Assembly (NCBI RefSeq): GCF_009795845.1
Contig: NZ_WTEX01000002.1
Location: 62,001 to 126,000 of the forward strand
Direction of reading: 5' to 3'
Source: Gilliamella sp. Lep-s35
GTDB lineage: Bacteria; Pseudomonadota; Gammaproteobacteria; Enterobacterales; Orbaceae
Length of the DNA: 64,000 nucleotides
Shown here piece by piece: positions 9,121 through 59,585 of the stretch. Below the pieces are notes generated by a model, which did no database searches, was not told where the DNA came from, and saw only the letters and a list, made by a program, of their open reading frames with translations. Within the stretch, counting starts at the first letter, position 1. Every line of letters begins with the position of its first letter. The translations under genes and the position numbers were made by a program.

Positions 9121-9158
9121 ATTGTTTTAGTTAATCGGTTATTATAAGAGGATAAAAT

Positions 9159-9190
9159 AAAACCTTCAGCCTTGGCCGAAGGTTTTTTTA
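9159..9190 (+). terminator. Bidirectional terminator between pgi and crr
   Basis: AACCTTC-A-GCC and GGC-C-GAAGGTT form a strong stem with a two-base TT loop. The T-run on the plus strand serves pgi. On the minus strand the stem runs into a T-rich tract, so it may also end the ptsHI-crr transcript. Confidence 0.85.
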
Positions 9191-9201
9191 TATTTATGGA
9201 G

Positions 9202-9705
9202 TTACTTTTTAATTCGCATTATTGGAGTTTTACCAGCCTCAACTGTCCCCGATAGTTTGGTTAGTTCTACAACTGTTTCCATATTAGAAATAACCACTGG
9301 TGTTAATACTGATTTTGCTTTGCTTTCAAGTAGTGGCAGGTCAATCTCAATGATTGTATCGCCTACTTTTACTTGTTGGCCTTCTTCTGCAATTCGAGTA
9401 AAACCTTCACCTTTTAGTTCTACGGTATCAATACCAAAGTGAACAAAAAGTTCGATTCCTTCGTCTGATTCAATAGCAAAAGCGTGGTTCGTTTCAAAAA
9501 TTTTACCAATTTTACCATTTAATGGTGCAACAATTTTATTGCCAGATGGTTTAATTGCAACGCCATCACCAACAATTTTTTCAGCAAAAACTACATCTGG
9601 AACATCTTCGATTTTGACAATTTCGCCACTTAGGGGGGCAATAATCTCGATGCTGTTTTTATTATCATCAGATACAAATTGCTTAATTTTATCGAATAGA
9701 CCCAT
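9202..9705 (-). CDS. crr: PTS glucose-specific EIIA (EIIA-Glc)
   Basis: EIIA-Glc passes phosphate from HPr to EIIB-Glc and regulates adenylate cyclase and non-PTS permeases. The 167-residue protein starts [14 protein letters not shown], like the enteric protein. It has the paired histidines in [14 protein letters not shown] and the phospho-histidine in [19 protein letters not shown]. It is the last gene of ptsH-ptsI-crr, nine bases after ptsI, and ends at a bidirectional terminator. Confidence 0.97.
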
Positions 9706-9714
9706 TATTGTCTC

Positions 9715-11442
9715 CTAACAAACTTGCTTTTCAGCAGTATAATTTTCAATTAACTCGATGATTTCTTTGGATGTTGCTTTTTCAAGTACAGTATCTGCAA
9801 ATTTTTTCGCTTCTGCATAATTTGTATTACGAATTAATTTTTTAATTTTTGGAATAGATACTGCACTCATACTAAATTCATCAAGTCCCATACCAAGTAA
9901 TAAGATAGTAGCTCTTTCATCACCAGCAAGTTCACCACACATGCCAGTCCATTTACCTTCTTGGTGAGAAGCATCAATAACTTTTTTAATCAGTGCCAAC
10001 ACTGAAGGTGAAAACGGATTATAAAGGTGAGAAATTAGTTCATTGCCACGGTCAACAGCTAAAGTATATTGTGTTAAATCGTTAGTACCAATACTAAAGA
10101 AATCCACCTCTTTAGCTAAATGATGCGCAATTACAGCTGCTGCTGGTGTTTCGATCATAACGCCGATTTCAATATTTTTGTCAAATGCTTTACCTTCGGC
10201 ACTTAATTGTTCTTTAAGAATATTAATTTCAGATTTTAAGGTGCGAATTTCTTCAACAGAAATAATCATAGGGAACATGATGCGAAGTTTACCAAATGCT
10301 GATGCTCGTAATATTGCACGTAGTTGTGCGTGTAATATTTCTTTGCGATCTAAGCATATGCGAATAGCTCGCCAACCTAAGAATGGATTTTCTTCTTTTG
10401 GTAGGTGCATATAAGGTACATCTTTATCACCACCAATATCCATGGTTCGAACAATAATTGATAGGCCATTAGCTGCTTCAGCAACTTCTTTGTAGGCTTT
10501 GAATTGTTCTTCTTCATTTGGGTATGCTTCACGATCCATAAATAAAAATTCAGTACGATAAAGCCCAACCCCTTCGTAGCCATTACGCTCAGCTCCAGCA
10601 ATATCACGAACAGTACCGATGTTACTACAAATTTCTACTTGATGACCATCAAGTGTGACGGCAGGTAAATCTTTTAATTTTGCCAATTCTTCTTTATCGG
10701 CAATGTATTTTGTCTGAACTTGTTTTAGTTTTTCTTGAGTGCTGTGATCTGGATTAATATAAATGGCATTATTTATTGCATCTAAAATAATAAAATCACC
10801 ATGCTTGATCTTTTGAGTGGCATTAGATGTGCCGACAATAGCTGGGATTTCTAAAGAGCGAGCCATAATTGATGTGTGCGAAGTACGACCACCTGCATCA
10901 GTAATAAAACCTAATACCATCTCTAAGTTTAATTGCGCTGTTTCTGATGGTGTTAAGTCAGTGGCAACTAAAACACATGGTTGGCTTATTGCACTCAAAT
11001 CAACAATTTCGATACCTAAAATATTTTTAAGCAATCGTTTACCGATATCACGAATATCGGCAGCACGCTCTTTTAAATATTCATCATCTAAGTTTTCTAA
11101 TTCTTTAGCTTGAGTTTCAAAAACAGATTGAACCGCAGCGTCTGCACTTGAATGTTTGCTTTGAATACGAGAAATCACTTCTTGTTCAAGATCTTCATCT
11201 TCAAGAAGCATAATATGTCCTTCAAAAATGGCTGCTTTATCTTCGCCTAATGTTGATTTTGCACGCTCCATAATTGCGTGTAACTGTTCACTTGATTTTT
11301 CTCGAGCTGCCTTAAAACGTTCGATTTCAGAGTCAATTTTATTATCAACAACTTGTCTATTGTTAATAACAATTGGTTCTTCTTTTAGTAATAACGCTTT
11401 CGCAAACGCGATGCCGGGGGAAACAAGTATACCTGATACCAT
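9715..11442 (-). CDS. ptsI: Phosphoenolpyruvate-protein phosphotransferase (PTS enzyme I)
   Basis: Enzyme I takes phosphate from PEP and gives it to HPr, energising all PTS transporters. The 575-residue length is normal. The active-site histidine is in [22 protein letters not shown] (about residue 190). The PEP-binding C-domain shows [12 protein letters not shown], the MFPMI region and [18 protein letters not shown], and the conserved cysteine region [11 protein letters not shown]. It lies 52 bases after ptsH. It would also supply phosphate to the PTS locus at 43.5-45.7 kb. Confidence 0.98.
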
Positions 11443-38016: not shown

Positions 38017-39144
38017 CTATAGAAATACCTCTAATAACGAATTCAAAAATAGTTTACCATGATCTGTTATTTGCCAACTTTCTTTATTTTCAATTAAATA
38101 ATTTTTTTCAATAGCAGTTGCTAACTGTTTTTCAACTGAGTGTAAAGGTAAATAAGTCCGTTGTTCAAATTCATGTTTAGGTGTTGGTTCAAAAAGTCTA
38201 AAGCGATTCATAAAAAACTCAAAAGGTAACTCTTCTTTTGAGACATCATAACATTTATCTAAATAACGCCCTTCTAAATACCCTTTTGGGTGACGAGTTT
38301 TTATAGTTCGAATAATTTTTCCGTCAGGTTGCGTTAATTTACCATGAGCACCACATCCGATGCCTAAATAGTCGCCAAATCGCCAATAATTTAAATTATG
38401 TTGGCATTGCGAACCTTCTTTAGCATAAGCCGAGGTTTCATACTGCTGGTAACCATGCTGAGTTAATAATTGATGACCTTGTTGATAAATTTCCCAAAGT
38501 TTATCATCATCAGGTAAAACAGGTGGTTTTGAACCAAATAGCGTATTGGGCTCAATGGTTAATTGATACCAAGATAAATGCGGTGGTGCAATAGCAATGG
38601 CTTGTTTTAGGTCATATATGGCATCATCAATACTTTGATTCGGCAAACCATGCATTAAATCTAAATTAAAACTTCTTAAATTTAATGTTTTGGCTAGTTT
38701 TCCGGCTGTGATTGCTTCTTTGGGATCGTGTATCCGTCCCAATTTAACAAGTTTATCGGCTTGAAAACTTTGCACACCAATTGATATTCGGTTTATGCCA
38801 GCTTGTTGATAACCATTAAATCTTTCTATATCAACAGAGTTTGGATTAGCTTCAATCGTGATTTCAGCATCTTTATTTATCGGTATTATCTTATTTATAT
38901 TTGATAATAATTTATCAATCAACTCGGCAGAAAATAGACTAGGTGTACCACCACCAATAAAGATTGAATGAATTGAACGATTTGAACAGAAAATAGCATC
39001 TTGCTGTAGATCTTTAATTAAATTCGCTATATAAGCTTGATAATCTGGTGTTTTTTTTACAGTATGCGAATTAAAATCACAATAGGGACATTTTTGTACG
39101 CACCATGGCATATGAATATACAAACTCATTGGGATTTTATACAT
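38017..39144 (-). CDS. hemW: Heme chaperone HemW (radical SAM)
   Basis: HemW is a radical SAM-family protein related to HemN that binds heme and delivers it to respiratory enzymes. The 375-residue protein has the cluster-binding CVQKCPYCDFNSH near residue 15. It also has the family's FIGGGTPSLF, IEANPNSVD, GVQSFQ and FNLDLMHGLPNQ motifs, and the HemW-type C-terminal domain. It lacks HemN-specific features, which favours HemW. It is monocistronic on the minus strand. Confidence 0.9.
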   Translation of the reverse strand: MYKIPMSLYIHMPWCVQKCPYCDFNSHTVKKTPDYQAYIANLIKDLQQDAIFCSNRSIHSIFIGGGTPSLFSAELIDKLLSNINKIIPINKDAEITIEANPNSVDIERFNGYQQAGINRISIGVQSFQADKLVKLGRIHDPKEAITAGKLAKTLNLRSFNLDLMHGLPNQSIDDAIYDLKQAIAIAPPHLSWYQLTIEPNTLFGSKPPVLPDDDKLWEIYQQGHQLLTQHGYQQYETSAYAKEGSQCQHNLNYWRFGDYLGIGCGAHGKLTQPDGKIIRTIKTRHPKGYLEGRYLDKCYDVSKEELPFEFFMNRFRLFEPTPKHEFEQRTYLPLHSVEKQLATAIEKNYLIENKESWQITDHGKLFLNSLLEVFL

Positions 39145-47834: not shown

Positions 47835-48503
47835 TTGAAAATGTTAGAGATACAAAAACAATATGTTGTGGATATGGCTAAAAAATCGAGTGAGTGGGGG
47901 CTTTGTAAACATAAAGCCGGTAATTCTAGTGTTCGTGATAAAGAAACAGGGTATGTACTTGTTACGCCAACAACAATTGATAAAAAGTTGTTAACAATTC
48001 GGGATATTGTTGTGATGGATCTTGATGCAAATGTTATTGAAGCAGATTCTGGATTGAGACCAACGAGTGAATGTTTAATGCATCTTGAGATTTATAAAGC
48101 TCGCCCAGATATTTTTGCTATTTCGCATACTCATTCTATTTTTGCAACTTCATTTGCCGTATTAGCCAGACCTATTCCAGCGGTTGTTTATGAATGTGCA
48201 ATTCTTAATTTAAAAGATGGTGTGATTCCTGTTGCACCCTATGGACGACCAGGAACTCCAGATCTTTCAAATAGCGTTATAGAACCCATAAAACGAGCTG
48301 ATGCAATTTTGATGGAAAAACATGGTGCGATTGCTGTAGATAAAGACCCTTATGAAGCTGTATTAAAAGCCGCTTATATTGAAGAAATGGCTGAAATTTA
48401 CTATCACGCTCTACTTATTAATGGTGGCAAAGATCCCGGAGGATTTCCTTCACAGGAGTTACAAAGCTGGGCATATCCTTCGCAAATTAAATTTAAAAAA
48501 TAA
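47835..48503 (+). CDS. Class II aldolase (fuculose-phosphate aldolase-like)
   Basis: A 222-residue zinc aldolase/epimerase-family enzyme, like FucA, AraD and UlaF. Visible features are KHKAGNSSVRD, VTPTTIDKK, RPTSECLMHLEIYKA (with the catalytic Glu), the zinc histidines in ISHTHSIFATSF and a third in LMEKHGAIAV. It lies just after the PTS regulator and probably cleaves or epimerises the imported sugar phosphate. Its 3' 156 bases and downstream DNA are duplicated at 56773-57027. An IS3-family element sits 18 bases after its stop. Confidence 0.87.
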   Translation: MKMLEIQKQYVVDMAKKSSEWGLCKHKAGNSSVRDKETGYVLVTPTTIDKKLLTIRDIVVMDLDANVIEADSGLRPTSECLMHLEIYKARPDIFAISHTHSIFATSFAVLARPIPAVVYECAILNLKDGVIPVAPYGRPGTPDLSNSVIEPIKRADAILMEKHGAIAVDKDPYEAVLKAAYIEEMAEIYYHALLINGGKDPGGFPSQELQSWAYPSQIKFKK

Positions 48504-48521
48504 TTTTTAGTCTATTAATTT
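48348..48521 (+). repeat. 255-bp direct repeat, copy A, left part
   Basis: The last 156 bases of the aldolase gene and the next 18 bases are repeated without visible differences at 56773-56946. The rest of copy A continues at 49667-49747, after the IS3-family insertion and its duplicated ATTT target. Confidence 0.93.
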
Positions 48522-48595
48522 TGTAACTCCCCCCTAAAATAGCACAGCAAAAAAGTAGAAAATTCTCCATAATAAAAGTAAAAGAGGATTTAAAC

Positions 48596-48852
48596 ATGAA
48601 AAAATAACTGAACACCAAATTGTATCGATATTAAAAGAAGCTGAAGCGGGTATTCCGGTTAAAGAACTGTGCCGTAAATATGGCATGGGCAACTCGACTT
48701 TTTATAAGTGGCGAGAAAAATATGGCGGAATGGAAAGCTCAGATATCAAACGCTTAAAAGAGCTTGAGGCAGAAAATCGCAAACTTAAACAGATGTTTGC
48801 TGAGTTAAGTTTAAAATCCCAACTTCAGGAAGAAATTATAAAAAAGCTGTAA
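48596..48852 (+). pseudogene. IS3-family orfA, frame broken at a poly-A tract
   Basis: The DNA-binding subunit reads EHQIVSILKEAEAGIPVKEL, then KYGMGNSTFYKWREKYGG and a leucine-zipper-like tail to the stop. The only suitable ATG (48596) is out of frame: ATG is followed by six A and a TAA. One extra A would give MKKITEHQIV in frame. The gene is therefore disabled, or is expressed through slippage on the A tract. Confidence 0.75.
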
Positions 48853-49622
48853 TGCCCACGCAGGAACGTAAAACGTGGGCGGAAAAGCGACAAGCAACAC
48901 ATGCAATTACAATTGCAATGAGTTGCGCAATAATGGGATTAAGTCGCAGTGCTTATTATTATCAACCTAAGTTGCCGGATGACTCGATGATTATTGCGAT
49001 ATTGAGCAATATCGCAGAAAGACATTTACGTTGGGGTTTTCCTAAATGTTTTCATCGCATTAGAAAGCTCGGTTATCAATGGAATCGTAAACAGCGTATT
49101 CCACCCCGAACCCCTAAAAAGTTATCGGTTCCTAATAAACAAGGTGAATGTTGGTCAATGGATTTTATGAGTGATAGTAGCCAAAATCAACGCCGTTTTA
49201 GAACATTCAACGTCATTGATGACTTTAACCGAGAAGCATTAGGCATTGATATTGCGGTTAGTTTACCTGCAGGTAGAATCATTCGTTATCTGGATAAACT
49301 GGCTCAATACCATGGTTATCCGTTAAAAATACGGGTCGATAATGGGCCAGAATTTACTGGAAAAACGTTTACTAATTGGGCAAAATTACATGGTATTACT
49401 ATTGATTATATTGAGCCTGGTAGCCCATATCAAAACGGTTATATTGAACGATTTAACCGAACTTATCGAACCGAGGTGTTAGATTTATATCTTTTTAACA
49501 ACCTAGAGCAAGCAAGGAGAATGACTGAAGAATGGCTAACCATTTATAATACAGAAAGACCGCATGAGGCACTAAATAATATGACGCCGATTGAATTTAA
49601 AACACTAAAACAGGCAGCGTAA
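48852..49622 (+). CDS. IS3-family transposase orfB with a probable internal deletion
   Basis: The 256-residue integrase-fold transposase keeps all three catalytic residues: WSMDFMSDS, RVDNGPEFTG and YIERFNRTYR. Its ATG overlaps the orfA stop (TAATG). Between KLGYQWN and RKQRIPPRTPKKL the usual IS3-family segment NHKRVYR...LNLR appears to be missing without loss of frame, about 18-20 residues. Activity is therefore doubtful. Confidence 0.8.
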   Translation: MPTQERKTWAEKRQATHAITIAMSCAIMGLSRSAYYYQPKLPDDSMIIAILSNIAERHLRWGFPKCFHRIRKLGYQWNRKQRIPPRTPKKLSVPNKQGECWSMDFMSDSSQNQRRFRTFNVIDDFNREALGIDIAVSLPAGRIIRYLDKLAQYHGYPLKIRVDNGPEFTGKTFTNWAKLHGITIDYIEPGSPYQNGYIERFNRTYRTEVLDLYLFNNLEQARRMTEEWLTIYNTERPHEALNNMTPIEFKTLKQAA

Positions 49623-49666
49623 TTTTCTATGTGAGTTTTGTGCTAAAAATGGGGTATTTACAATTT

Positions 49667-49747
49667 TAATGCGTTAATTGTAGGAAAACGCCGATTTGTT
49701 TACAGTATTTTCTCAAATTACTGTAAACAAATCGAGGAATTTCTACA
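49667..49747 (+). repeat. 255-bp direct repeat, copy A, right part
   Basis: Identical to 56947-57027 as far as I can read. It contains the 69-bp MITE and ends exactly at the MITE's outer end. Beyond it copy A enters the RiPP cluster flank, whereas copy B continues into different DNA. Confidence 0.9.
49679..49747 (+). mobile_element. 69-bp MITE made of IS481-type ends, copy A
   Basis: The ends TGTAGGAAAACGCC and (reverse) TGTAGAAATTCCTCG match the right and left ends of the IS481-family fragments at 55953 and 56063. Internally TTTGTTTACAGTA and TACTGTAAACAAA form a long palindrome. It encodes nothing and is best read as a non-autonomous derivative of that IS. Confidence 0.8.
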
Positions 49748-49848
49748 GCTAAATATGTTTACTCTAATTTTTGGATGTTCATGAAACTATTTATTAGTAG
49801 GTATCAAATACGAAAATTCAATTAAATATGTTAAAGTTCGCTATAAAA

Positions 49849-50715
49849 TTATTTTTTTACTACTGTTTGAATCCAGAGTCTCTTATTTTTGAAATCAATT
49901 TTAACTATATTTTTACTAAGAAAATCAAACCCAATCAATCCATCAGACTGGAACTCAGCAGGAAGGGAGTCCAATATAACAGCTTTGATATTATCATTAG
50001 CAACATTATTTACTTTAAGTGAAACAAATTTATAATCACTTTCATCATCATTTATTTTAATCGTTTTAAAGGACAGGGATTGCTTTTTTATCACTGACAT
50101 GGAGGCCCCACTATCTAAAATCATTTTATAATCTTTTATGCCATCAGACATCTCAATGGCTAAACCTTCATCATTGAGATGAAAGGGAATTGGAATCCAT
50201 TTTTTATCTAAGTCAGCAGAAATATCCGTTTCATCCGATACTATTATTTTACTTTCAGGATAATTAATAGTTAACACATAACCATCAAACAAACCTAGTC
50301 CAATTACTGGGTTTTCTATATTTTCATTTTCGTTATTATTAGAATTATCACTAGAAAATCTTAATCCCCAACTGTTATATTCTACGACTCCCACACGTTT
50401 AAAAATAAAGGAATTTAATTTTAAATTATTGATAATAAATGATCTAACCTCTGAAACATTACCAGATAAATCAATACTTTTTATTTTTTGTAAATTTTCA
50501 GATTTATTTGGAATTTTATCAATTAAATTTATTGGTAGGTGTAAGGCTTCTTTGGTGCCAGTATCTAATGTTAATGCAATTTTTTCACCTTCGAGGTTTA
50601 TTATTACAATGGGTAAATTATATTTGTTATCAAAAGTCAGATCCCAAACGGTTTCATTACCCTGTGCAAAGTTACTTATTAATAATATGATTAAAGATAA
50701 TAGCCTTTTATTCAT
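49849..50715 (-). CDS. Exported aspartic protease-like protein in RiPP cluster
   Basis: Predicted signal peptide (MNKRLLSLIILLISNFAQG) then about 269 residues with two retropepsin-type motifs, LTLDTGTKEALHLP near the N-terminus and MILDSGASMSVIKK in the second half. Each is followed by a hydrophobic-Gly pattern (PVIGLGLFDGY, DGLIGFDFL). This fits a two-lobe clan AA aspartic protease working in the periplasm or at the membrane. The start at 50715 is chosen for the signal peptide; in-frame ATGs at 50730 and 50754 exist. Last gene of the precursor-rSAM-HlyD-ABC operon. Possible roles are final trimming of the peptide or self-protection; neither is shown. Confidence 0.72.
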   Translation of the reverse strand: MNKRLLSLIILLISNFAQGNETVWDLTFDNKYNLPIVIINLEGEKIALTLDTGTKEALHLPINLIDKIPNKSENLQKIKSIDLSGNVSEVRSFIINNLKLNSFIFKRVGVVEYNSWGLRFSSDNSNNNENENIENPVIGLGLFDGYVLTINYPESKIIVSDETDISADLDKKWIPIPFHLNDEGLAIEMSDGIKDYKMILDSGASMSVIKKQSLSFKTIKINDDESDYKFVSLKVNNVANDNIKAVILDSLPAEFQSDGLIGFDFLSKNIVKIDFKNKRLWIQTVVKK

Positions 50716-50768
50716 AATAAATTTTCTCATTGTATAAGTATCGCTCAAGTGCATTTTTTGATTTAATC

Positions 50769-52901
50769 TTATTTAACACAAGTGTTTAAGGAGTCTTCGA
50801 CGATCAAACCATTGTCTAATAATACCACTCTATCTGCCATATTAATAGTTTCTGCTCTATGTGCAACAACAAGTTTAGTAAAATGATAACCTATTATAGA
50901 AGTGTTTACTATTTTTTCATTTGCAATATCTAAATGGCTAGTTGCTTCATCTAACGCTAGAATTTTAGGTTCTCTATAAAGTGCTCTAGCGAATAAAACT
51001 CTTTGCTTCTGGCCACCTGATAATCCCGTGCCTATATCACCTATAATCGTGTTATATTTCATTGGCATTTTAACTATTTCCTCATGAATTGCGGCCTTTA
51101 AGGCGTAGTGTTCTATTTTTTCTTGTTCAGGTTCAGAATCAAAAAAACAAATATTATCTGCTATTGTTCCTGCAAATAAATGATCATCTTGCATTACTGT
51201 TCCTATTAAACCTCTATAATAGTTTATATCTAAATTAGAAAGAGGAGTTTCACCAATAAATATTTGCCCTTCGGTTGGCTTCAAAAGACCTAAAACTATC
51301 TTTAAGAGTGTTGTTTTTCCGCACCCAGATGGACCTGTTATAGCTAGACACTGCCCCATAGGTATAGTTAAATTTATATTTTTCAAAACAAAGGGGTCAT
51401 TGTCTGAATAACGAAAGGATATATTTTTTAGTTCAATGGTAAAATCAGAAATTAATCTTTTATCAACTGTTCGTGCGCCTGTTTCATTACGTTCCACAGG
51501 GCTAAAAACAATATCAGCTAAACGCTCAACATGTAGTTTTAACATTGAAATATCACAAATTTTATCTATTAAAGATACTATTTTATCGGACAGTTGTTCT
51601 TTATAGCTCATAAAAGCGAAAAGCATACCAATAGAAAATAAATTATCTAGAATTAATGAAGCGGCGATCCAGATAACTATGATTCGATCCAAACTAAAAA
51701 TTAAGGTGTTTGCAAATTGAAAAGAAATATTAAACTTCTCTAATCGTAGATGTGCATTAAATTCTTTAGCAGATAAATTCATCCAATTTATATAGCGTTC
51801 TTTATGATGATTATATAAGCGAATGCTTTGCATACCTCTAATGGATTCTAGAAAGTGACTTTCTTGATTAGCTCTACTTATTATATGTTGGGACGTTATA
51901 TTTCGTTGTTGACTAAATGTAAACCATCGTAAAATTACATAAAGAAAAATTGAAAAAACAGAAATCATAGCAAGTGTAAAATTATATGAACACATCATTG
52001 CAAAAGTCGTAATAACTAAAAGACCGTCAACTATACTAGCGACAACCTTAGTTGTTAATCCATCCTGTATTTCTTGAATTGAATGAAATCTAGATACAAT
52101 ATCAGCGAGATGTCTACGTTGAAACCATTCTAAAGGCAAATTTAGAATATGGCTAAAAACATTCCCTCTCCATTGATAGCTAAGTTGTGTAGAGAATACT
52201 GCAGTAAACCAAGATCTCACTGCTTCAACTGATATCCGCAGTAAAACAAGCAAAGTAAATCCTATACCCAATACAGTCAATAAACCTCTATTTGAAACGG
52301 CTATAACATCGTCAACAATCCACCGCAAATACAAAGGAGATATAAGTGTACAAACTTGAATCATTATCCCTAATACAAGCAACTGGAATAATCCTTTTTT
52401 TAAACCTATTACATTACCCATAACAGATTTAAAAGAAATTTTAGGTGACTTTTTCTCGGGTAAAAATTCTGTGGTAGGAGTAAATTCTATTGCCACACCT
52501 GTGAAATGGTGAGATACCTCATCAATTTTTAATTTAACTTTTCCTACTGCTGGGTCATGAATAAAAACTGAATGACCTCTGACCTTCTTTAAAACAACAA
52601 AATGATTAAGATCCCAATGAAGAATACAAGGACACTTCAAGTTTTTTAATTGATCCAATTCTAATCTAAGTGGGCGACTGCTAAATTTTAATTCATTTGC
52701 GATATGAATAATATTTTTTAGTGAAGCACCTCTCAAAGAAAAAGAGTGCTTATTTCTCATCTCCATTAAAGTTAAATTAAAACCCCAATAATTTACAATC
52801 ATTGTCAAACATGCTAATCCGCATTCAGAACCTTCATTTTGTAAATGCATTGGCAATCGATTTCTGTATTTAAACTGAAGATCTAATTTTTCTTTCATCA
52901 T
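50769..52901 (-). CDS. Peptidase-containing ABC exporter (C39 PCAT) of RiPP cluster
   Basis: A 710-residue transporter that should cut the leader after Gly-Gly and export the core. The N-terminal C39 peptidase has the full catalytic set: Gln21, Cys27 in NEGSECGLACL, His100 in LHWDLNHFVVL and Asp116 in IHDPAVG. A six-helix membrane domain follows. The nucleotide-binding domain has ITGPSGCGKTTLLK, the signature LSGGQKQRVLFARAL and ILALDEATSHLD. Its ATG overlaps the stop of the HlyD-type gene. The intact peptidase matches the GG leader of the small precursor at 55464-55628. Confidence 0.93.
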   Translation of the reverse strand: MMKEKLDLQFKYRNRLPMHLQNEGSECGLACLTMIVNYWGFNLTLMEMRNKHSFSLRGASLKNIIHIANELKFSSRPLRLELDQLKNLKCPCILHWDLNHFVVLKKVRGHSVFIHDPAVGKVKLKIDEVSHHFTGVAIEFTPTTEFLPEKKSPKISFKSVMGNVIGLKKGLFQLLVLGIMIQVCTLISPLYLRWIVDDVIAVSNRGLLTVLGIGFTLLVLLRISVEAVRSWFTAVFSTQLSYQWRGNVFSHILNLPLEWFQRRHLADIVSRFHSIQEIQDGLTTKVVASIVDGLLVITTFAMMCSYNFTLAMISVFSIFLYVILRWFTFSQQRNITSQHIISRANQESHFLESIRGMQSIRLYNHHKERYINWMNLSAKEFNAHLRLEKFNISFQFANTLIFSLDRIIVIWIAASLILDNLFSIGMLFAFMSYKEQLSDKIVSLIDKICDISMLKLHVERLADIVFSPVERNETGARTVDKRLISDFTIELKNISFRYSDNDPFVLKNINLTIPMGQCLAITGPSGCGKTTLLKIVLGLLKPTEGQIFIGETPLSNLDINYYRGLIGTVMQDDHLFAGTIADNICFFDSEPEQEKIEHYALKAAIHEEIVKMPMKYNTIIGDIGTGLSGGQKQRVLFARALYREPKILALDEATSHLDIANEKIVNTSIIGYHFTKLVVAHRAETINMADRVVLLDNGLIVEDSLNTCVK

Positions 52902-54163
52902 AAGTCGCCGTTGATGCTAAATAGTGATTCAAGTATCCACTCATAAATTTTTCTATCTTCTAACACTATATTTGCCTCAAGAGACATTCCAATTTTTAGC
53001 GGATAATATTGACCATAAACTAGTATATTTTGTTTTTCTAACTTAACTTTTACCCGATAATAAGCATCCTTTTCATTATTAAATTGTTGAGAATATATTC
53101 CTAACGATTTTAATTCATTTATTTGTACAGCATTACTACTTATTTCTGTAATGGTACCTTTATGTTGCCCAAATTTTTGATAAGGGTAGGCTTGATATCT
53201 AAGTAATACGGGCATTCCTAACTTAATAAATCCTAAAGAATTAGAGGGAATAAATAAATTTGCTTCAAGCGTATAATCTTTCGGTAAGATAGTTGCTATC
53301 AGACTATTTTCCTCAATACTTTGACCTTTTGAAACCATAATTGTACTGATTGTTCCATCTTTTGGAGCTGAAATTATAATAAATTTTTGTGCGTTATTTT
53401 CAGCAATTTCTTTTTCAATGGCATTTAGCTCTTGTGTATATCTTGCATAATCTCTTTTCTCTTGCAAAGGTAATTGCAATAACTCAATATCTGAATTATT
53501 TATATCTCGATTAATCGATGTTAACTTTCGTTGTAAATCAAAAAGTATTGATTGCTGATCCAATAAATCTGACTTACGTTGTTCATACTCCAGAAGTGAA
53601 ATACTTTTGGAATTGATTAGATTTCTATATTTTTGAACTAAATTAGTTGCAATACTTACCCGTTCCTTTTGTGCAACTATTTGAGATTCTAATAACTGTC
53701 TCTCTTCTTCAAGATTATTTTTTGATTGTATTGCTGATTGTGTTTTTACTGAATACTGTTTAAGTAAAATTTGATGATCGTCTATTAAGCTTGCCTTTCG
53801 TTGCAATAAAAATTTTTCTATATCAGCCTGAATCGGAAGAAATTTTGAGTTTTTTAAGATAAATAATGAATCTCCCTGTTTTATAGCTTGTGCTTCCTGC
53901 ACTAAAACCTCATCAATAATACCAGATTCTGATGGCAAGATTCTTATTATCCCATCAACTGGAAGCAAAGTACCATTAACATGAATTTTTCGACTATAAC
54001 TAAAAAAAATAAAAAATATAAAAAAAGAAATGAATAAGAGTGAAAATAAAAAAGTAAGTGCACGGATGCTATAAGGTCTAGTAAGTAAGATCTGTCCACA
54101 AAATCTTACCTGATTATTGTTAATTGCATCTTCTCGAAACAGAGATCTATTAGATTCACTCAT
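52898..54163 (-). CDS. HlyD-family periplasmic adaptor of RiPP cluster
   Basis: A 421-residue membrane-fusion protein with one N-terminal membrane segment (ALTFLFSLLFISFFIFFIFF). A lipoyl/biotinyl-like half follows (GIIDEVLVQEAQAIKQGDSLF), then a long coiled coil (about residues 120-240, many Gln/Leu/Lys) and the returning half (IISAPKDGTISTIMVSKGQSI). It links the ABC exporter to an outer-membrane channel such as TolC. It overlaps the exporter gene by four bases and starts 32 bases after the maturase gene. Confidence 0.92.
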   Translation of the reverse strand: MSESNRSLFREDAINNNQVRFCGQILLTRPYSIRALTFLFSLLFISFFIFFIFFSYSRKIHVNGTLLPVDGIIRILPSESGIIDEVLVQEAQAIKQGDSLFILKNSKFLPIQADIEKFLLQRKASLIDDHQILLKQYSVKTQSAIQSKNNLEEERQLLESQIVAQKERVSIATNLVQKYRNLINSKSISLLEYEQRKSDLLDQQSILFDLQRKLTSINRDINNSDIELLQLPLQEKRDYARYTQELNAIEKEIAENNAQKFIIISAPKDGTISTIMVSKGQSIEENSLIATILPKDYTLEANLFIPSNSLGFIKLGMPVLLRYQAYPYQKFGQHKGTITEISSNAVQINELKSLGIYSQQFNNEKDAYYRVKVKLEKQNILVYGQYYPLKIGMSLEANIVLEDRKIYEWILESLFSINGDL

Positions 54164-54195
54164 TCTGTAATTTTCAAAATAATAAAAAAAAGTTA

Positions 54196-55383
54196 TTAAA
54201 AGAGATTATGTTTAATTGAATCATAACTTTTACCTTGTTGAATTACTAAGTCGCATAGCCTCAGTGATATCTCATGATATACGCCACATAAAGCATTTAC
54301 ATTATTCATATCGTTTTCTTTGCTATATCGATGTGGTATCGAACCGAATCCCCACCCATTTCTACATATTTTTTTCACACCACATTCATTACATTTCTCG
54401 GGTAAGGTAAATAATTTTCTATAAAGATCTTTTAATTTTTCGTCAGAGAGATAATCAGATAATGTATTATTTTTAATATTATATTCATTAGTAAATAAAT
54501 ACGGATAAATATTGCGTAAAATATCATCTGGATTTAGAGAGCCATCTGAACGTATTGTTAAGGATACATATTTTCTTTTCTCTTTTTTATCTGCCTCAGT
54601 ACCACTTAAAACTAATTGTTTTAAAATATCGTTAAAATTTCGTACCGATATATCATGAACTATAGTAGGCGTATTAATTCTTTCCCATTCATTATAAACA
54701 GCAAGTAAATTATTACTTATTTTCTCTACTGTCTCTTGATTTAATTCATCAATTGTTAAGTCAAGCTCAACAAAAGAAATAAAGGGACTTTCTAAATCAT
54801 CAAGAAAATGTTTGAATGTTATCTTTGTATCACTGCTGTCATTAATGACACTAATTATGCCAGGAAACACAACTTTATTACTTCTTGCTGCACAAATAAG
54901 TTTTTTCAAACCTTCAGTAGCTCTGACGTAAGTTCCTCTTCCTTTTTTATCGATTCTATTTGCATCATGAATAGCTTGATCTCCATCTAAGCTAACTGAA
55001 GCTGCGACATTATATTTTGAAAAAATCTCTACCCATTCGTCATCAATAAGAGTTCCATTGCTTTGTAGTACATATTCTAAATCCACTAGTTGAGAGAGTT
55101 CAGTATCAAATAGTTCTACCATTTCTACAAAGCGTTTTTTCCCCATCATTAACGGCTCACCGCCGTGAAAATCTAATCTTAGTAATTTTATTTCATTTGC
55201 TAAAATTGCCTCTTTTAGGAAACTAGCTAAAGCATGAATAGTATCTTTTTTAATAACATTAGGTCTTTCATCGAAGTCTATATTTCCACCTCTAAAAAAA
55301 TAACAATAACGACACGCAATATTACAACATTCAGTTATTTTCAAAATAACTTCTAATATATCTACTTTAATAGAATTTGACAT
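54196..55383 (-). CDS. Radical SAM/SPASM peptide maturase (Xye/GrrM-like)
   Basis: A 395-residue radical SAM enzyme expected to install carbon-carbon cross-links in the precursor. The [4Fe-4S] SAM site is C20-x3-C24-x2-C27 within ECCNIACRYCYFF; DFHGGEPLM follows near residue 75. The C-terminal SPASM region has Cys at about 331, 334, 340 and 366 (KCNECGVKKICRNGWGFGSIPHRY split here as CNECGVKKIC and RNGWGFGSIPHRY). These are the auxiliary-cluster ligands of peptide-modifying enzymes. The precursor gene lies 80 bases upstream. Subfamily placement with Xye-type cyclophane synthases is inferred from the precursor and operon. Confidence 0.9.
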   Translation of the reverse strand: MSNSIKVDILEVILKITECCNIACRYCYFFRGGNIDFDERPNVIKKDTIHALASFLKEAILANEIKLLRLDFHGGEPLMMGKKRFVEMVELFDTELSQLVDLEYVLQSNGTLIDDEWVEIFSKYNVAASVSLDGDQAIHDANRIDKKGRGTYVRATEGLKKLICAARSNKVVFPGIISVINDSSDTKITFKHFLDDLESPFISFVELDLTIDELNQETVEKISNNLLAVYNEWERINTPTIVHDISVRNFNDILKQLVLSGTEADKKEKRKYVSLTIRSDGSLNPDDILRNIYPYLFTNEYNIKNNTLSDYLSDEKLKDLYRKLFTLPEKCNECGVKKICRNGWGFGSIPHRYSKENDMNNVNALCGVYHEISLRLCDLVIQQGKSYDSIKHNLF

Positions 55384-55406
55384 AATTGCTCCTCTTAAGT
55401 TCGATT

Positions 55407-55441
55407 TAATTCTAAGGCTGTTTAACGTAGCCTTAGAATTA
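55407..55441 (-). promoter_or_regulatory. Perfect 13-bp hairpin between precursor and maturase genes
   Basis: TAATTCTAAGGCT and AGCCTTAGAATTA pair perfectly around a nine-base loop. No T-run follows on the transcribed strand. It probably stabilises or partly terminates the transcript after the precursor gene, giving more peptide than enzyme. Confidence 0.75.
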
Positions 55442-55463
55442 CACTAAAAATAATATCTATATC

Positions 55464-55628
55464 TTAAAAAGAACGTCTCCAGCGAGCATATGCTCTCCAC
55501 CAACCGCCGTTAACTTCGTCAAGATATTGCGCAGCAAGTTCTTCCATTGCTTTCGCATTAGGAACATTTTTTCTTTTAGCTTCAGTATCACGCAAACGTT
55601 GTTCGATTGTTTTTTTTGAAAAAAACAT
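55464..55628 (-). CDS. RiPP precursor peptide, GG leader and aromatic/Arg core (XyeA-like)
   Basis: A 54-residue peptide too short for ordinary gene calling. The charged leader MFFSKKTIEQRLRDTEAKRK continues to MEELAAQYLDEVNGG, a typical C39-type double-glycine leader. The predicted core after GG is WWRAYARWRRSF. It contains three aromatic-X-Arg triplets, WWR, YAR and WRR, the pattern on which triceptide maturases build three-residue cyclophanes. GGAGG lies six bases before the ATG. It is first in a minus-strand operon with a radical SAM enzyme, adaptor, C39 exporter and aspartic protease. Core boundaries and modification are inferred. Confidence 0.88.
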   Translation of the reverse strand: MFFSKKTIEQRLRDTEAKRKNVPNAKAMEELAAQYLDEVNGGWWRAYARWRRSF

Positions 55629-55952
55629 ATAAACCTCCAATTAAATTTAAATTAAATTTTTGATCAAAAAACAGCCAATAAAGTTAAATATCGATCTACT
55701 TGGCCATTTGTTGATCAATTTGCATTCTACTGGTTATCGTTTCAGAATCAATAAATAAAAAATAAATTTGTGAACTAGATCATCGTTTTGATATTTCATT
55801 GAAAATAATTTGATGTATGTCAATTATTAAAATAACCATTACAAATATTTTTATAGCTTACTGCGGTACCATTCATGGTAACATCTGCCAGTAGTTTTGC
55901 TGCTGTGGGCTCAAAATTAAGCTCTTGGGCAACTACTCAAAAATACATCAGG
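55629..55952. other. Upstream region of the RiPP operon
   Basis: 324 bases presumably holding the operon promoter. Close to the precursor start lies a nearly pure A/T tract with self-complementary TTAAATTTAAATTAAATTT. From 55820 to 55936 the minus strand has a 38-codon frame without a start (VVAQELNFEPTAAKLLAD onwards) that may be a gene remnant. No promoter can be fixed. Confidence 0.4.
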
Positions 55953-56062: not shown

Positions 56063-56109
56063 TGTAGAAATTCCTAGCGTTGTTTACAGTAATTTGAGAA
56101 AATACTGTA

Positions 56110-56769
56110 ATGAATATACACAAAAAAACAAAACTAACGCCTTATCACAGACAAGAAATATGGCGCTTATATCATAAAGAAAAAATAACGGTCACTGATT
56201 TGGCAAAACGCTTTATGGTCAGTCGGCCTACCATTTATAACGTACTAAAGAAAGCCCGATTAAAGCTGTTTGTGCCTTTGGCCAGTAAGAATGACCGTTA
56301 TAAAACCATCAGTTATGGAATTAAACGTCTGGTTAAAGTCGAAAAATCGATTGAAGATAAATTAAGACGGCAAGCTAAACGCTATAACAAAACCTATCCG
56401 GGTGAAATGCTACACGTTGATACCAAACGTTTACCTTTACTTAAAAATGAAACGAAACAACAAACTAGAGAATATTTATTTGTTGGCATTGATGATTTTT
56501 CACGTGAGCTTTATGCCGGTATTTACCCTGATAAATCCCAATTTAGCTCGGCACAATTTTTACAAAACGATGTGTTAGCCCAGTGTCCTTATACCATTAC
56601 ATGTATTTATTCCGATAACGGGCGTGAATTTCAAGGCACCAGCGAACACCTATTTGTTAATACGTGTCATAGCCATCGTATTAATCAAAAATTCACCAAA
56701 CCAGCCTGCCCGCAAACGAATGGGAAAGCCAAAAGCGTGATACGGACTTTGAATTGCGATGTGGCATAA
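56110..56769 (+). pseudogene. IS481-family transposase, C-terminally truncated
   Basis: 219 residues remain. An N-terminal helix-turn-helix (LTPYHRQEIWRLYHKEKITV, then DLAKRFMVSRPTIYNVL) precedes an integrase core with EMLHVDTKRLP, VGIDDFSRELYAGIYPD and IYSDNGREFQG. The expected third acidic residue in the TNGKAE motif is Lys here (QTNGKAKSVIRT), and the protein stops a few codons later, so it is inactive. Confidence 0.85.
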
Positions 56770-56772: not shown

Positions 56773-57027
56773 CCTTATGAAGCTGTATTAAAAGCCGCTT
56801 ATATTGAAGAAATGGCTGAAATTTACTATCACGCTCTACTTATTAATGGTGGCAAAGATCCCGGAGGATTTCCTTCACAGGAGTTACAAAGCTGGGCATA
56901 TCCTTCGCAAATTAAATTTAAAAAATAATTTTTAGTCTATTAATTTTAATGCGTTAATTGTAGGAAAACGCCGATTTGTTTACAGTATTTTCTCAAATTA
57001 CTGTAAACAAATCGAGGAATTTCTACA
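56773..57027 (+). repeat. 255-bp direct repeat, copy B (aldolase 3' end plus MITE, empty IS site)
   Basis: Copies 48348-48521 joined to 49667-49747, but without the IS3-family element and with a single ATTT. The coding part starts at codon 172 of the aldolase, so it is a gene fragment. Its outer boundary coincides with the MITE end on the right and with a truncated IS481 on the left. Confidence 0.93.
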
Positions 57028-57028
57028 A
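56958..57028 (+). mobile_element. IS481-type MITE, copy B, flanked by TTAA
   Basis: The same MITE as at 49679-49747. Here TTAA lies directly on both sides (56954-56957 and 57029-57032) when one extra base is counted at each end, suggesting an original target duplication. In copy A only the left TTAA is present, so copy B preserves the ancestral right junction. Confidence 0.7.
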
Positions 57029-57110
57029 TTAAGATAAACTGTGTGATAATCAGCGTATCAATTGAAAATCGACAAAACTCATCTACCCACAAGCTGAAAG
57101 TGTGGCATGA

Positions 57111-57191: not shown

Positions 57192-57608
57192 GTGTCACGC
57201 CGTTACATTGCTCGGGTGATGAAAGCTTTATTGCTGGTATCAAAATACACCGTTAAACGTTATCAATCTCACACTACGGAAGTGAATGAAACCGCCACAG
57301 AAAATCACCTGCAACGACAATTTGATGTTGGTGATAAAAAACAAATTGTTGTTGCGGATTTAACGTATATTCAAGTTAAGCAACGTTGGAACTATTTATG
57401 TGTTTTAGTGAACTTATCCGATAGGCAGATTGTCGGTTACCATGTTGGCCAACATAAAACAGCAGAGCTTGTTATGTCGGCATTAAGCCAAATTAAACTG
57501 CCATTATCGAATGCCTATTGGTATAATCATAAACGATTACATTCTTCGTTAGGCTACTTGCCTCCCGTTGAATTTAAAAAACACTTACCCCTTAATTTTT
57601 TTGTTTGA
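57192..57608 (+). pseudogene. IS3-family orfB fragment with internal deletion
   Basis: Starts inside the usual SRRYIARVMK helix region, continues to VVADLTYIQVKQRWNYLCVLVNLSDRQIVGY, given here as VVADLTYIQV and NYLCVLVNLSDRQIVGY, then jumps from SALSQIKLPLSN to the C-terminal WYNHKRLHSSLGYLPPVEF. The second catalytic Asp and the Glu are lost with the deleted middle. It is unrelated at sequence level to the intact IS3-family element at 48.5 kb. Confidence 0.85.
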
Positions 57609-57955
57609 AAATGTGTTGCCATTCCAATATCAAAAATGGCGAAATCATTCCCTCTATGGCTGGACTGGCTTTATATGCTAACTGTTCAAGGTCGAGTTTA
57701 TACAATTATGCGAGTTCAAGCGAAGAATTTAAGGATATGGTAGAACTTATTAAAGCACGCCAAGAAGTCGAGTTAATTAATAAAGGCTTAAAAGGCGAGT
57801 TTAACGCGAGTATTGCTAAATTGATGCTTGCTAATCATGGTTATTCTGAAAAGCAGATATTAGATCATCAATCTATGGGAAGTAGCATTACAGCCAAATC
57901 CAAATCAATGCGCATAGAACTAGTATCGCCACCATCAAAGGATTTAACCGCCTGA
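57605..57955 (+). pseudogene. Phage terminase small subunit-like gene, 5' end replaced by IS debris
   Basis: The part from IIPSMAGLALYANCSRSSLYNYA through LINKGLKGEFNASIAKLMLANHGYSEK looks like a phage DNA-packaging (terminase small subunit) protein of the type with GLTGEFNS and KLMLGNHGY motifs. The first 15 residues overlap the end of the IS3 fragment and are probably not original. It is a remnant of a prophage or satellite that now borders the IS cluster. Product identity is tentative. Confidence 0.55.
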
Positions 57956-58667: not shown

Positions 58668-58880
58668 ATGCAAAATATCCAAGTAAATAGATATCCTGCG
58701 TTAAATAAAATTTTGTGGGACTATCAAGGGCAAACAATTCCAGAAGACGAAGCTTTCAAAATTTATGAAAGAAGATGGTGCTTTATTAAAGATGTAAAGC
58801 TTGCTGCCAACGAAAAGAAATTAATCCATAAACTTATTAAAGAGTATGGAAATGGCTATTTCCTACCTACGTGCGTTTAG
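58668..58880 (+). CDS. Small protein upstream of AbiEii-like gene
   Basis: A 70-residue protein of unknown family, starting MQNIQVNRYPALNKILWDYQ and containing ERRWCFIKDVKLAANEKKLI. ACGAGG lies before the ATG. Its stop is three bases before the nucleotidyltransferase gene, so they are certainly co-transcribed. By position it could be the antitoxin or a regulatory partner, but it is much shorter than AbiEi antitoxins and shows no DNA-binding motif I recognise. Confidence 0.65.
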   Translation: MQNIQVNRYPALNKILWDYQGQTIPEDEAFKIYERRWCFIKDVKLAANEKKLIHKLIKEYGNGYFLPTCV

Positions 58881-58883
58881 TTT

Positions 58884-59585
58884 ATGTCATATAAGTTAAC
58901 TCATCATCAAATAATAGACCATTTATTAAATAATTTTAATGTCGATTTTTTAGTTGACAACAATATTTATTTTGGTGGCGGAACTCGAATAGCATTAGAA
59001 TTAAATGAGTTTAGGGAATCAATTGATATAGATTTATTGTGCCCTACTATTGAATCCTACAGAGCAGTAAGAAATACAGTAACATCAGATAGTTTAGGAT
59101 TGTTGGTGAAAAGAGAATTTCAATATATTAGAGAGATATCTTTTGACCGTTATGCTGTACGTGCGTTTATTAAAGAAAATCCAAAGCCCATAAAACTTGA
59201 AATTGTTAGCTTTGAAAAATATCAGTTAACAGGAAAACAAGATAAATTATTTCCTATACCATATTTAGATAAAGAGAGCTGTTTCTACACTAAGCTTTTA
59301 GCTAATGCCGACAGAGCCACACAACCACCCTATAAAGATATCATTGATATTTTATTTATGCTCCATTGTTGGGGAAGTATACCTCAATCTGCCTTATTAA
59401 ATGCAAAGATGATTTATGGCAATAGCATTATAAATGGGTTAAAGATAGCGGCTAATGATATAGAAAAAAATAAAGATAAATATTCAACGAATTGTATTAA
59501 TTTAGGTATATCTGAACAAAATATAAACATCATACTAAATGATAGCTTAAATAAACTTTTATCCTATCTAGAAAACCAAAAGTAA
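58884..59585 (+). CDS. AbiEii/AbiGii toxin-family nucleotidyltransferase
   Basis: A 233-residue protein of the nucleotidyltransferase fold. The motif YFGGGTRIALELNEFRESIDIDLL combines the GG-T loop and the Asp-x-Asp metal site used by AbiEii-type toxins. Further landmarks are PIKLEIVSFEKY and YLDKESCFYTKLLANADR and the KDIIDILFML helix. AbiE systems are type IV toxin-antitoxin and phage-exclusion modules; this one lacks a recognisable AbiEi and is paired with a 70-residue protein. It lies in the mobile island. Confidence 0.8.
   Translation: MSYKLTHHQIIDHLLNNFNVDFLVDNNIYFGGGTRIALELNEFRESIDIDLLCPTIESYRAVRNTVTSDSLGLLVKREFQYIREISFDRYAVRAFIKENPKPIKLEIVSFEKYQLTGKQDKLFPIPYLDKESCFYTKLLANADRATQPPYKDIIDILFMLHCWGSIPQSALLNAKMIYGNSIINGLKIAANDIEKNKDKYSTNCINLGISEQNINIILNDSLNKLLSYLENQK

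What the first reader, a model, noticed from the sequence alone, without database searches (positions are those of the whole stretch)
49849..55628. Compact RiPP operon of Xye/triceptide type: precursor, radical SAM, HlyD, C39 exporter, aspartic protease
Seen directly: five minus-strand genes with short gaps or overlaps, an intact C39 peptidase triad (Cys27/His100/Asp116), radical SAM CxxxCxxC and SPASM cysteines, and a 54-residue peptide ending in a GG leader plus 12-residue core. Established: Xye-type radical SAM/SPASM enzymes make strained three-residue cyclophanes, and products of related clusters are antibacterial. Inferred: this operon makes and secretes a cross-linked, Arg/Trp-rich peptide, plausibly used in competition in a gut community. 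I cannot tell whether this exact cluster has been described.
Basis: partly seen in the sequence, partly recalled or inferred. Interest (0 to 1): 0.93.

Follow-up and report, generated by a model that had tools for sequence, protein, structure and literature searches.

The report
Bee-gut Xye-type cyclophane peptide operon
A bee-gut bacterium (Gilliamella) carries a compact five-gene operon that very probably makes, cuts and exports a short, triple-ringed, arginine-rich peptide related to insect-symbiont antibiotics reported to block outer-membrane assembly; it is a distant new branch of a known kind, not a new kind.

Summary
Five minus-strand genes at 49849-55628 encode a 54-aa double-glycine precursor, a radical SAM enzyme, an HlyD adaptor, a C39-ABC exporter and an aspartyl protease. 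The genome is taken to be a Gilliamella. The precursor's only NCBIfam hit is XyeA (30.0 bits, cut-off 33; E 4e-7); the enzyme's best is XyeB (221 bits, cut-off 450). The core WWRAYARWRRSF keeps the Xye register (aromatics at 1, 5, 8; W-x-[K/R]-S-F end), with Tyr in ring 2 and Arg at all three partner positions. Predicted: three rings, 1739.891 to 1733.844 Da. Xenorceptides are reported BamA inhibitors and the C-terminus resembles darobactin's, so BamA is the best target guess, by inference only. Of 44 Orbaceae genomes, a close maturase is in two: this one, and one matching the G. intestini contig, where its frame is broken and no precursor is on the contig. The cluster is AT-rich, IS-flanked and lies between 175-bp perfect direct repeats. 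New variant of a known kind; chemistry and activity untested.

The parts
55464..55628 (-). RiPP precursor, 54 aa; leader ends GG (55503-55508), core WWRAYARWRRSF (55467-55502)
   Evidence: TIGR04495 XyeA 30.0 bits, cut-off 33, E 4.3e-7 on the 58-aa frame that holds it; alignment with XyeA relatives
55634..55638 (-). GGAGG, probable ribosome-binding site of the precursor gene
   Evidence: read
55407..55441 (-). hairpin between precursor and maturase genes; probably sets the precursor:enzyme ratio (inference)
   Evidence: 13-bp stem, -16 kcal/mol, z -4.71; G. intestini has a hairpin of different sequence before its maturase, z -4.58
54196..55383 (-). radical SAM/SPASM-type maturase, 395 aa, XyeB-like
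   Evidence: TIGR04496 XyeB 221.2 bits, cut-off 450; tree; cysteines
52898..54163 (-). HlyD-type periplasmic adaptor, 421 aa
   Evidence: PF13437 over cut-off; TIGR01843 127.1 bits, below its cut-off of 208.65
50769..52901 (-). C39 peptidase-ABC exporter, 710 aa
   Evidence: PF03412, PF00664, PF00005; triad C27/H100/D116
49849..50754 (-). aspartyl protease, 301 aa, read as two-lobed, hydrophobic N-terminus (probable start Met14, about 50715)
   Evidence: PF13650 E 2.1e-9 over the C-terminal lobe only; Asp64 and Asp214 kept in 12 of 12 aligned sequences
48348..48522 (.). left copy of 175-bp perfect direct repeat (3' end of class II aldolase gene)
56773..56947 (.). right copy of the 175-bp direct repeat
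48523..49661 (+). insertion with IS3-like transposase genes 48685-48852 and 48852-49622, inside the left repeat block
   Evidence: the IS3 label is inferred from the domains
56110..56769 (+). integrase-core transposase gene ending next to the right repeat
   Evidence: PF00665

Best explanation
This is a horizontally acquired triceptide (three-residue cyclophane) operon of a deep XyeB-like lineage in Gilliamella. The maturase joins each aromatic residue of the core to the beta-carbon of the residue two places on: W1-R3, Y5-R7, W8-R10, a loss of 2.016 Da per ring. The C39 domain of the exporter cuts after GG while the peptide is pumped out through HlyD and the chromosomal TolC. The aspartyl protease works in the periplasm, either trimming the product or removing peptide that leaks back. 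The stiff, cationic 12-residue product with a W-x-R-S-F end most likely acts on other Gram-negative gut bacteria at the BamA lateral gate, as reported for xenorceptides and darobactins. Shown by sequence: gene content, motifs, precursor register, phylogenetic place. Inferred: rings, export, cleavage, target, ecological use. The confidence given is for the triceptide operon; for the BamA target alone I would say about 0.4.
For: XyeA is the precursor's only NCBIfam family and XyeB the maturase's best. Tree: window inside the 15-row XyeB/XyeB-like clade, 98/96. The core keeps the register of the Xenorhabdus-type cores (WVNAFANWSKSF, WVNVFARWDKAI and others), 7 of 9 relatives fitting the pattern. 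HlyD and aspartyl protease are in 10 of 10 loci; the window's order B-HlyD-ABC-protease is that of 2 of these 10. XncB joins Trp to Arg or Asn and YhhB joins Tyr C3 to Arg (PMC11002830 passages). Xenorceptide A2 inserts into the BamA gate (review PMC12971899, passages). Darobactin-family precursors have WNWx(K/R)xF cores (PMC9055067 passage). TolC gene in the genome. GC 0.302 against 0.343 for the window.
Against: Both curated cut-offs are missed (XyeA 30.0 of 33, XyeB 221 of 450), and YhhB scores almost as well as XyeB (213.5 bits). The split that puts the window outside the other 13 rows of its clade is weak (83/72). Ring 1 has Arg where the seven fitting relatives have Asn. Three XyeB-like loci of the same clade (L047, L081, L082) have no match to the protease. 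No immunity gene is recognisable among the five genes, and the producer's own BamA gate segment is identical to that of 9 other Gilliamella genomes, so nothing there marks self-protection. In G. intestini the operon looks decayed.
Confidence: 0.82

Rival explanations
1. The maturase is functionally nearer YhhB/FxsB (Tyr- and His-ring formers) and makes a different ring set, for example only Y5-R7, with the Xye-like core kept for other reasons.
For: YhhB 213.5 bits against XyeB 221.2; YhhB is reported to join Tyr to Arg; Tyr at ring 2.
Against: Tree puts the window with XyeB rows at 98/96, the YhhB/FxsB rows in a neighbouring branch (itself 92/60). C39-ABC, HlyD and aspartyl protease are companions of the Xye loci and are not annotated in the 1-2.5 kb viewed beside three YhhB loci.
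Confidence: 0.1
2. The product is a signal or a metal- or host-interaction peptide and not an antibacterial.
For: No activity was tested; no immunity gene is recognisable among the five genes.
Against: Relatives are described as antibacterial BamA inhibitors; the W-x-[K/R]-x-F end matches the darobactin family pattern.
Confidence: 0.25
3. The operon is a decaying passenger on a mobile island and makes nothing.
For: Transposase genes on both sides and direct repeats; a close maturase in only 2 of 44 Orbaceae genomes; the G. intestini copy has the maturase in two frames and what I read as an IS where the precursor should be.
Against: In the window all five frames are open, the catalytic motifs checked are present and there is a good ribosome-binding site.
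Confidence: 0.1
4. A SPASM enzyme for a protein substrate (sulfatase maturase) beside an unrelated exporter.
For: Sulfatase maturase model scores 149.8 bits; sulfatase maturases 4k36/4k37 are among the structure hits.
Against: Below that model's cut-off of 349.45; the tree separates it (100/100); best PDB hit is the ChlB radical SAM domain 9gm3; XyeA-like precursor directly upstream.
Confidence: 0.02

Closest known systems
Xye triceptides / xenorceptides of Xenorhabdus (XyeA/XyeB, XncB)
   Same: GG precursor with 12-residue core in the same register; XyeB-clade radical SAM enzyme; HlyD, C39-ABC and aspartyl protease
   Different: Enzyme about 33% identical; both NCBIfam cut-offs missed; Tyr in ring 2, Arg at all three partner positions; order B-HlyD-ABC-protease instead of B-protease-HlyD-ABC
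   Same: Same gene order as the window, aspartyl protease last
   Different: Cores ASTAETWFKLDWKKSF and DAFLRFLRFRRVIIIIAQDM do not fit the register
YhhB and FxsB three-residue cyclophane enzymes
   Same: Same broad radical SAM group; YhhB joins Tyr to Arg
   Different: Separate branch; no C39-ABC, HlyD or aspartyl protease annotated in the 1-2.5 kb viewed beside the loci
Darobactin / dynobactin (bamabactins)
   Same: Short ringed peptide ending in Phe; darobactin family WNWx(K/R)xF against window ...W-R-R-S-F
   Different: Window lacks WNW; DarE 68.7 of 650 bits and DynA 107.7 of 450 bits
Gilliamella apis thiopeptide-like RiPP (PMC10673953)
   Same: RiPP from the same genus
   Different: Cyclodehydratase (YcaO)-based cluster with a 10-residue core of another sequence; different enzymes (passages seen)

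Membership tests
Xye triceptides | Precursor reaches NCBIfam TIGR04495 XyeA cut-off (33 bits) | tested here: not met
   30.0 bits, E 4.3e-7; 28.5 bits in the six-frame genome search
Xye triceptides | Maturase reaches NCBIfam TIGR04496 XyeB cut-off (450 bits) | tested here: not met
   221.2 bits; X. bovienii control 558.8
Xye triceptides | Maturase falls in the XyeB clade on a tree | tested here: met
   15-row clade 98/96 with XyeB and XyeB-like rows; outside the 9-row clade of the eight XyeB rows plus G211 (100/99)
Xye triceptides | GG leader and core with aromatic-x-x ring motifs in Xye register | tested here: met
Xye triceptides | HlyD, C39-ABC and aspartyl protease in the operon | tested here: met
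Three-residue cyclophane-forming enzymes (triceptides) | C-C bond between aromatic i and Cbeta of i+2 | not testable with these tools
   needs co-expression, mass spectrometry and NMR
Bamabactins (BamA inhibitors) | Binding to the BamA lateral gate | not testable with these tools
   only the W-x-[K/R]-x-F end resembles darobactins
Anaerobic sulfatase maturases | TIGR03942 cut-off and clade | tested here: not met
   149.8 of 349.45 bits; separate half of the tree
Darobactin/dynobactin maturases | NF038005 DarE or NF041298 DynA cut-off | tested here: not met
   68.7 of 650 and 107.7 of 450 bits

The most novel reading that the evidence does not exclude
Gilliamella makes a separate lineage of BamA-gate inhibitors: a fully ringed, all-arginine-partner, Tyr-containing 12-mer that a bee mutualist uses against Gram-negative rivals in a simple gut community, with a dedicated periplasmic aspartyl protease that finishes or disarms the peptide.
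Probability: 0.35. Interest if true: 0.65.

Novelty: new variant of a known kind. Interest (0 to 1): 0.47.

Why it matters
If true, BamA-directed ringed peptides are not only weapons of nematode symbionts but also occur in core gut bacteria of bees, a tractable community where producer and knockout could be compared in the animal. The divergent maturase with a Tyr-Arg ring and three Arg partners would widen the known substrate range of the XyeB branch. The aspartyl protease, found in 10 of the 10 loci and in none of the five other loci with related enzymes, has no role stated in the passages I read and becomes directly testable.

Tried and rejected
Sulfatase-maturase reading: rejected by scores and tree. 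DarE/DynA membership: rejected by scores. BamA change as self-protection: looked for in 35 of 35 Gilliamella genomes; the window genome's gate segment is identical to that of 9 others, of which only G021 has the operon, and its only private residue (position 360 of the aligned frame) lies outside that segment, which starts at 432. Structure of the aspartyl protease: the single-sequence model failed (mean pLDDT 36.3), so no fold search was made. PDB sequence search for the protease: one chance-level hit (E 0.61). Viral contigs: no relative. DNA-level search in plasmids: 30 records, none covering more than 9% of the query; 20 of 30 listed, those with a named feature in exporter genes. Promoter scan: no better than shuffles. 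Empty-site comparison: for 4 genomes fetched of the 18 others with an aldolase match, similarity ends shortly after the aldolase 3' end and none matches the window's right flank to 60000, so the original site could not be shown. Exceptions to the core pattern: G211 and G333 do not fit; G426, left out of the nine counted, keeps WINAFANW but has another C-terminus. The truncated XyeA-like frame of G211 (L049) was not counted as a core, although it, and not the precursor in the G211 cluster, is the G211 match over the XyeA cut-off.
Full report
WHERE IT IS. The window is part of a 2.47-Mb, 99.99% complete genome. The nearest match to the maturase in named genomes is Gilliamella intestini, 76% identical, of the family Orbaceae, so I take the genome to be a Gilliamella, a bee-gut genus (PMC10673953, passages). 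In 44 Orbaceae genomes a close copy of the maturase is in 2: this genome and G021, where it is split over two frames. G021:C87 has the length and match positions of the G. intestini contig, so I treat them as the same. A weak 28%-identity match in G035 is not counted. Only the maturase was searched across the family, not the other four genes.

THE OBSERVATION. All five genes, the C39 triad, the radical SAM motif and the GG precursor are as described. Gaps are short; exporter and adaptor overlap by 4 nt. The precursor has GGAGG at the right distance. Between precursor and maturase lies a 13-bp hairpin (-16 kcal/mol, z -4.71; 0 of 200 shuffles as good); G. intestini has a hairpin of different sequence just before its maturase (z -4.58; 0 of 200). 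I read it as a device that makes more precursor than enzyme; that is inference.

WHAT THE PARTS ARE. NCBIfam: precursor, XyeA, 30.0 bits against a cut-off of 33, E 4.3e-7; maturase, XyeB 221.2, YhhB 213.5, FxsB 176.1, sulfatase maturase 149.8, none reaching its cut-off. X. bovienii controls reach 69.3 (XyeA) and 558.8 (XyeB) bits. Because XyeB and YhhB scores are close, I built a tree (46 rows). The two Gilliamella sequences lie in a 15-row clade (98/96) with eight XyeB rows, G211, G333, Pseudoalteromonas and two genomes of one further genus. The YhhB and FxsB rows, with two more, form the neighbouring branch (92/60). The other half of the tree (24 rows, 100/100) holds two annotated sulfatase maturases and 22 rows of the order, of which the six I scanned are over the sulfatase-maturase cut-off. 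The Gilliamella stem is long (1.34), and the split that places it outside the other 13 rows is weak (83/72). PDB: best sequence match is the ChlB radical SAM domain, 9gm3.

THE CORE. Counted from the GG cut, the window core WWRAYARWRRSF is in register with WVNAFANWSKSF, WINAFGNWERAF, WVNAFGNWSKSL, WVNAFANWSKAL, WINVFARWNRAI and WVNVFARWDKAI; 7 of 9 relatives fit one pattern, G211 and G333 do not, and G426, not among the nine, departs at its C-terminus. The pattern was written after seeing these cores; 26 of 200000 shuffles of the window core keep it. By the chemistry described for XncB (Trp to Arg or Asn, Phe to Asn) and YhhB (Tyr C3 to Arg) (PMC11002830, passages) I predict rings W1-R3, Y5-R7 and W8-R10.

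COMPANIONS. In 10 of 10 loci chosen for an XyeB-type enzyme beside an XyeA-type or GG precursor there are an HlyD and an aspartyl protease gene; the exporter is in 9 of 10, the tenth being cut by its contig end. Order is maturase-protease-HlyD(-exporter) in 8 and maturase-HlyD-exporter-protease, as here, in 2 (G211, G333). I read the protease as two-lobed: both presumed catalytic Asp are kept in 12 of 12 sequences; the N-lobe triplet is DTG in 11 of 12 and the C-lobe triplet D[S/T]G in 9 of 12 (counted on the alignment). Pfam sees only the C-terminal lobe, and no fold model succeeded. The protease has no match in five other loci with related enzymes (L010, L047, L081, L082, L083), three of which (L047, L081, L082) sit in the same 15-row clade. 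A review of RiPP leader proteases (PMC10885120, term search of main text) has no occurrence of 'aspartic' or 'aspartyl'. The exporter needs an outer-membrane channel; one TolC gene is elsewhere in the genome.

TARGET. The review PMC12971899 (passages) says xenorceptides are a subclass of bamabactins and that xenorceptide A2 inserts as a strand in the BamA gate; I did not see the primary paper. PMC9484694 (passages) ties the name xenorceptide to Nguyen et al. 2020, which is not held. [quoted passage not shown] Two of the Xenorhabdus-type cores end in WSKSF, the last five letters of darobactin A, and the window core ends in WRRSF. That is a resemblance of a few residues and not a test. BamA in the window genome shows no gate residue tied to the cluster: its 32-residue gate segment is shared by 10 of 35 genomes.

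HOW RARE. XyeA over cut-off: 2 of 394 genomes of the order, 8 of 30 of the G309 genus, 0 of 369 of the class; the window genome itself is under the cut-off, and the G211 match is a truncated frame. XyeB over cut-off: 2 of 394. One search gave one weak extra, G751, with a GG peptide ending KWSRS followed by an enzyme 32% identical to the window's.

ORIGIN AND STATE. The cluster has GC 0.302, the window 0.343. It lies between 175-bp perfect copies of the 3' end of a class II aldolase gene, and the left copy is split from its following 91-bp element by an insertion with IS3-like transposase genes. In four other Gilliamella genomes the similarity ends shortly after the aldolase gene, so this site seems to take varied cargo. 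In G. intestini the maturase is in two frames, and the start of the contig carries sequence that I read, without a search, as an IS; no precursor is on the contig. In the window all five frames are open.

IN PRINT. Searches for triceptide/xenorceptide (19 of 19 listed), cyclophane with Orbaceae/Gilliamella/XyeB terms, XyeA/XncA/3-CyFE terms (20 of 51 listed), Gilliamella with RiPP and gene clusters, BamA with cyclophane and Xenorhabdus, Gilliamella with radical SAM and Gilliamella with bacteriocin terms listed no paper that by title, start of abstract or the passages opened describes such a cluster in Gilliamella. The main triceptide survey (Sugiyama et al. 2022) is not held, so it may be listed there.

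VERDICT. An open-framed, distant relative on the XyeB-like branch of triceptide operons in a bee-gut mutualist. The kind is known; the branch, the host and the Tyr/all-Arg ring set are what is new.

Noticed in passing
window 48348-48522 and 56773-56947; 49662-49752 and 56942-57032: A 175-bp perfect and a 91-bp 98% direct repeat flank the operon; the left pair is separated by an insertion with IS3-like transposase genes, with AATTTT at both joints. Looks like integration or duplication at an aldolase 3' end.
   Followed up: partly
window 49698-49728, 56082-56112, 56978-57008 and 10 other places in the genome: A palindromic element (GTTTACAGTATTTTCTCAAATTACTGTAAAC, up to 3 mismatches) occurs 13 times in the genome against 0 for the reversed control.
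   Followed up: partly
L009 / L084 (G. intestini contig): Sister operon with the maturase in two reading frames and no precursor on the contig, next to what looks like an IS.
   Followed up: partly
G021:C96:59620-59683: G021 has only the last stretch (query 622-688, 90%) of the aldolase segment that is repeated around the operon in the window.
   Followed up: no
window 58668-59585: AbiEii-type nucleotidyltransferase gene (PF08843) with a 70-aa frame just upstream: possible type IV toxin-antitoxin pair.
   Followed up: no
window 57192-57955: Fragment of an integrase-core transposase and a phage DNA-packaging gp3-like gene to the right of the operon.
   Followed up: no
L081, L082 (G135, G058): XyeB-like enzymes (about 310 bits) with a C39-ABC exporter and an unknown 393-394-aa protein, but no match to the aspartyl protease; a GG precursor was not evident at a quick look.
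   Followed up: no
L047 (Pseudoalteromonas sp. NC201 plasmid) 7680-10743: XyeB-like enzyme with a Gly/Tyr-rich GG precursor and a HEXXH-type peptidase-like neighbour, no match to the aspartyl protease.
   Followed up: no
L080 (G333) 8342-8521: Xye-like precursor with core DAFLRFLRFRRVIIIIAQDM: three F-x-R motifs and a hydrophobic tail.
   Followed up: no
L163 (G751): Weak XyeA match (23.4 bits) with a GG peptide ending KWSRS, followed by an enzyme 32% identical to the window's.
   Followed up: partly
window about 38620-39120: A second radical SAM domain in the window (E 2.3e-24), not examined.
   Followed up: no
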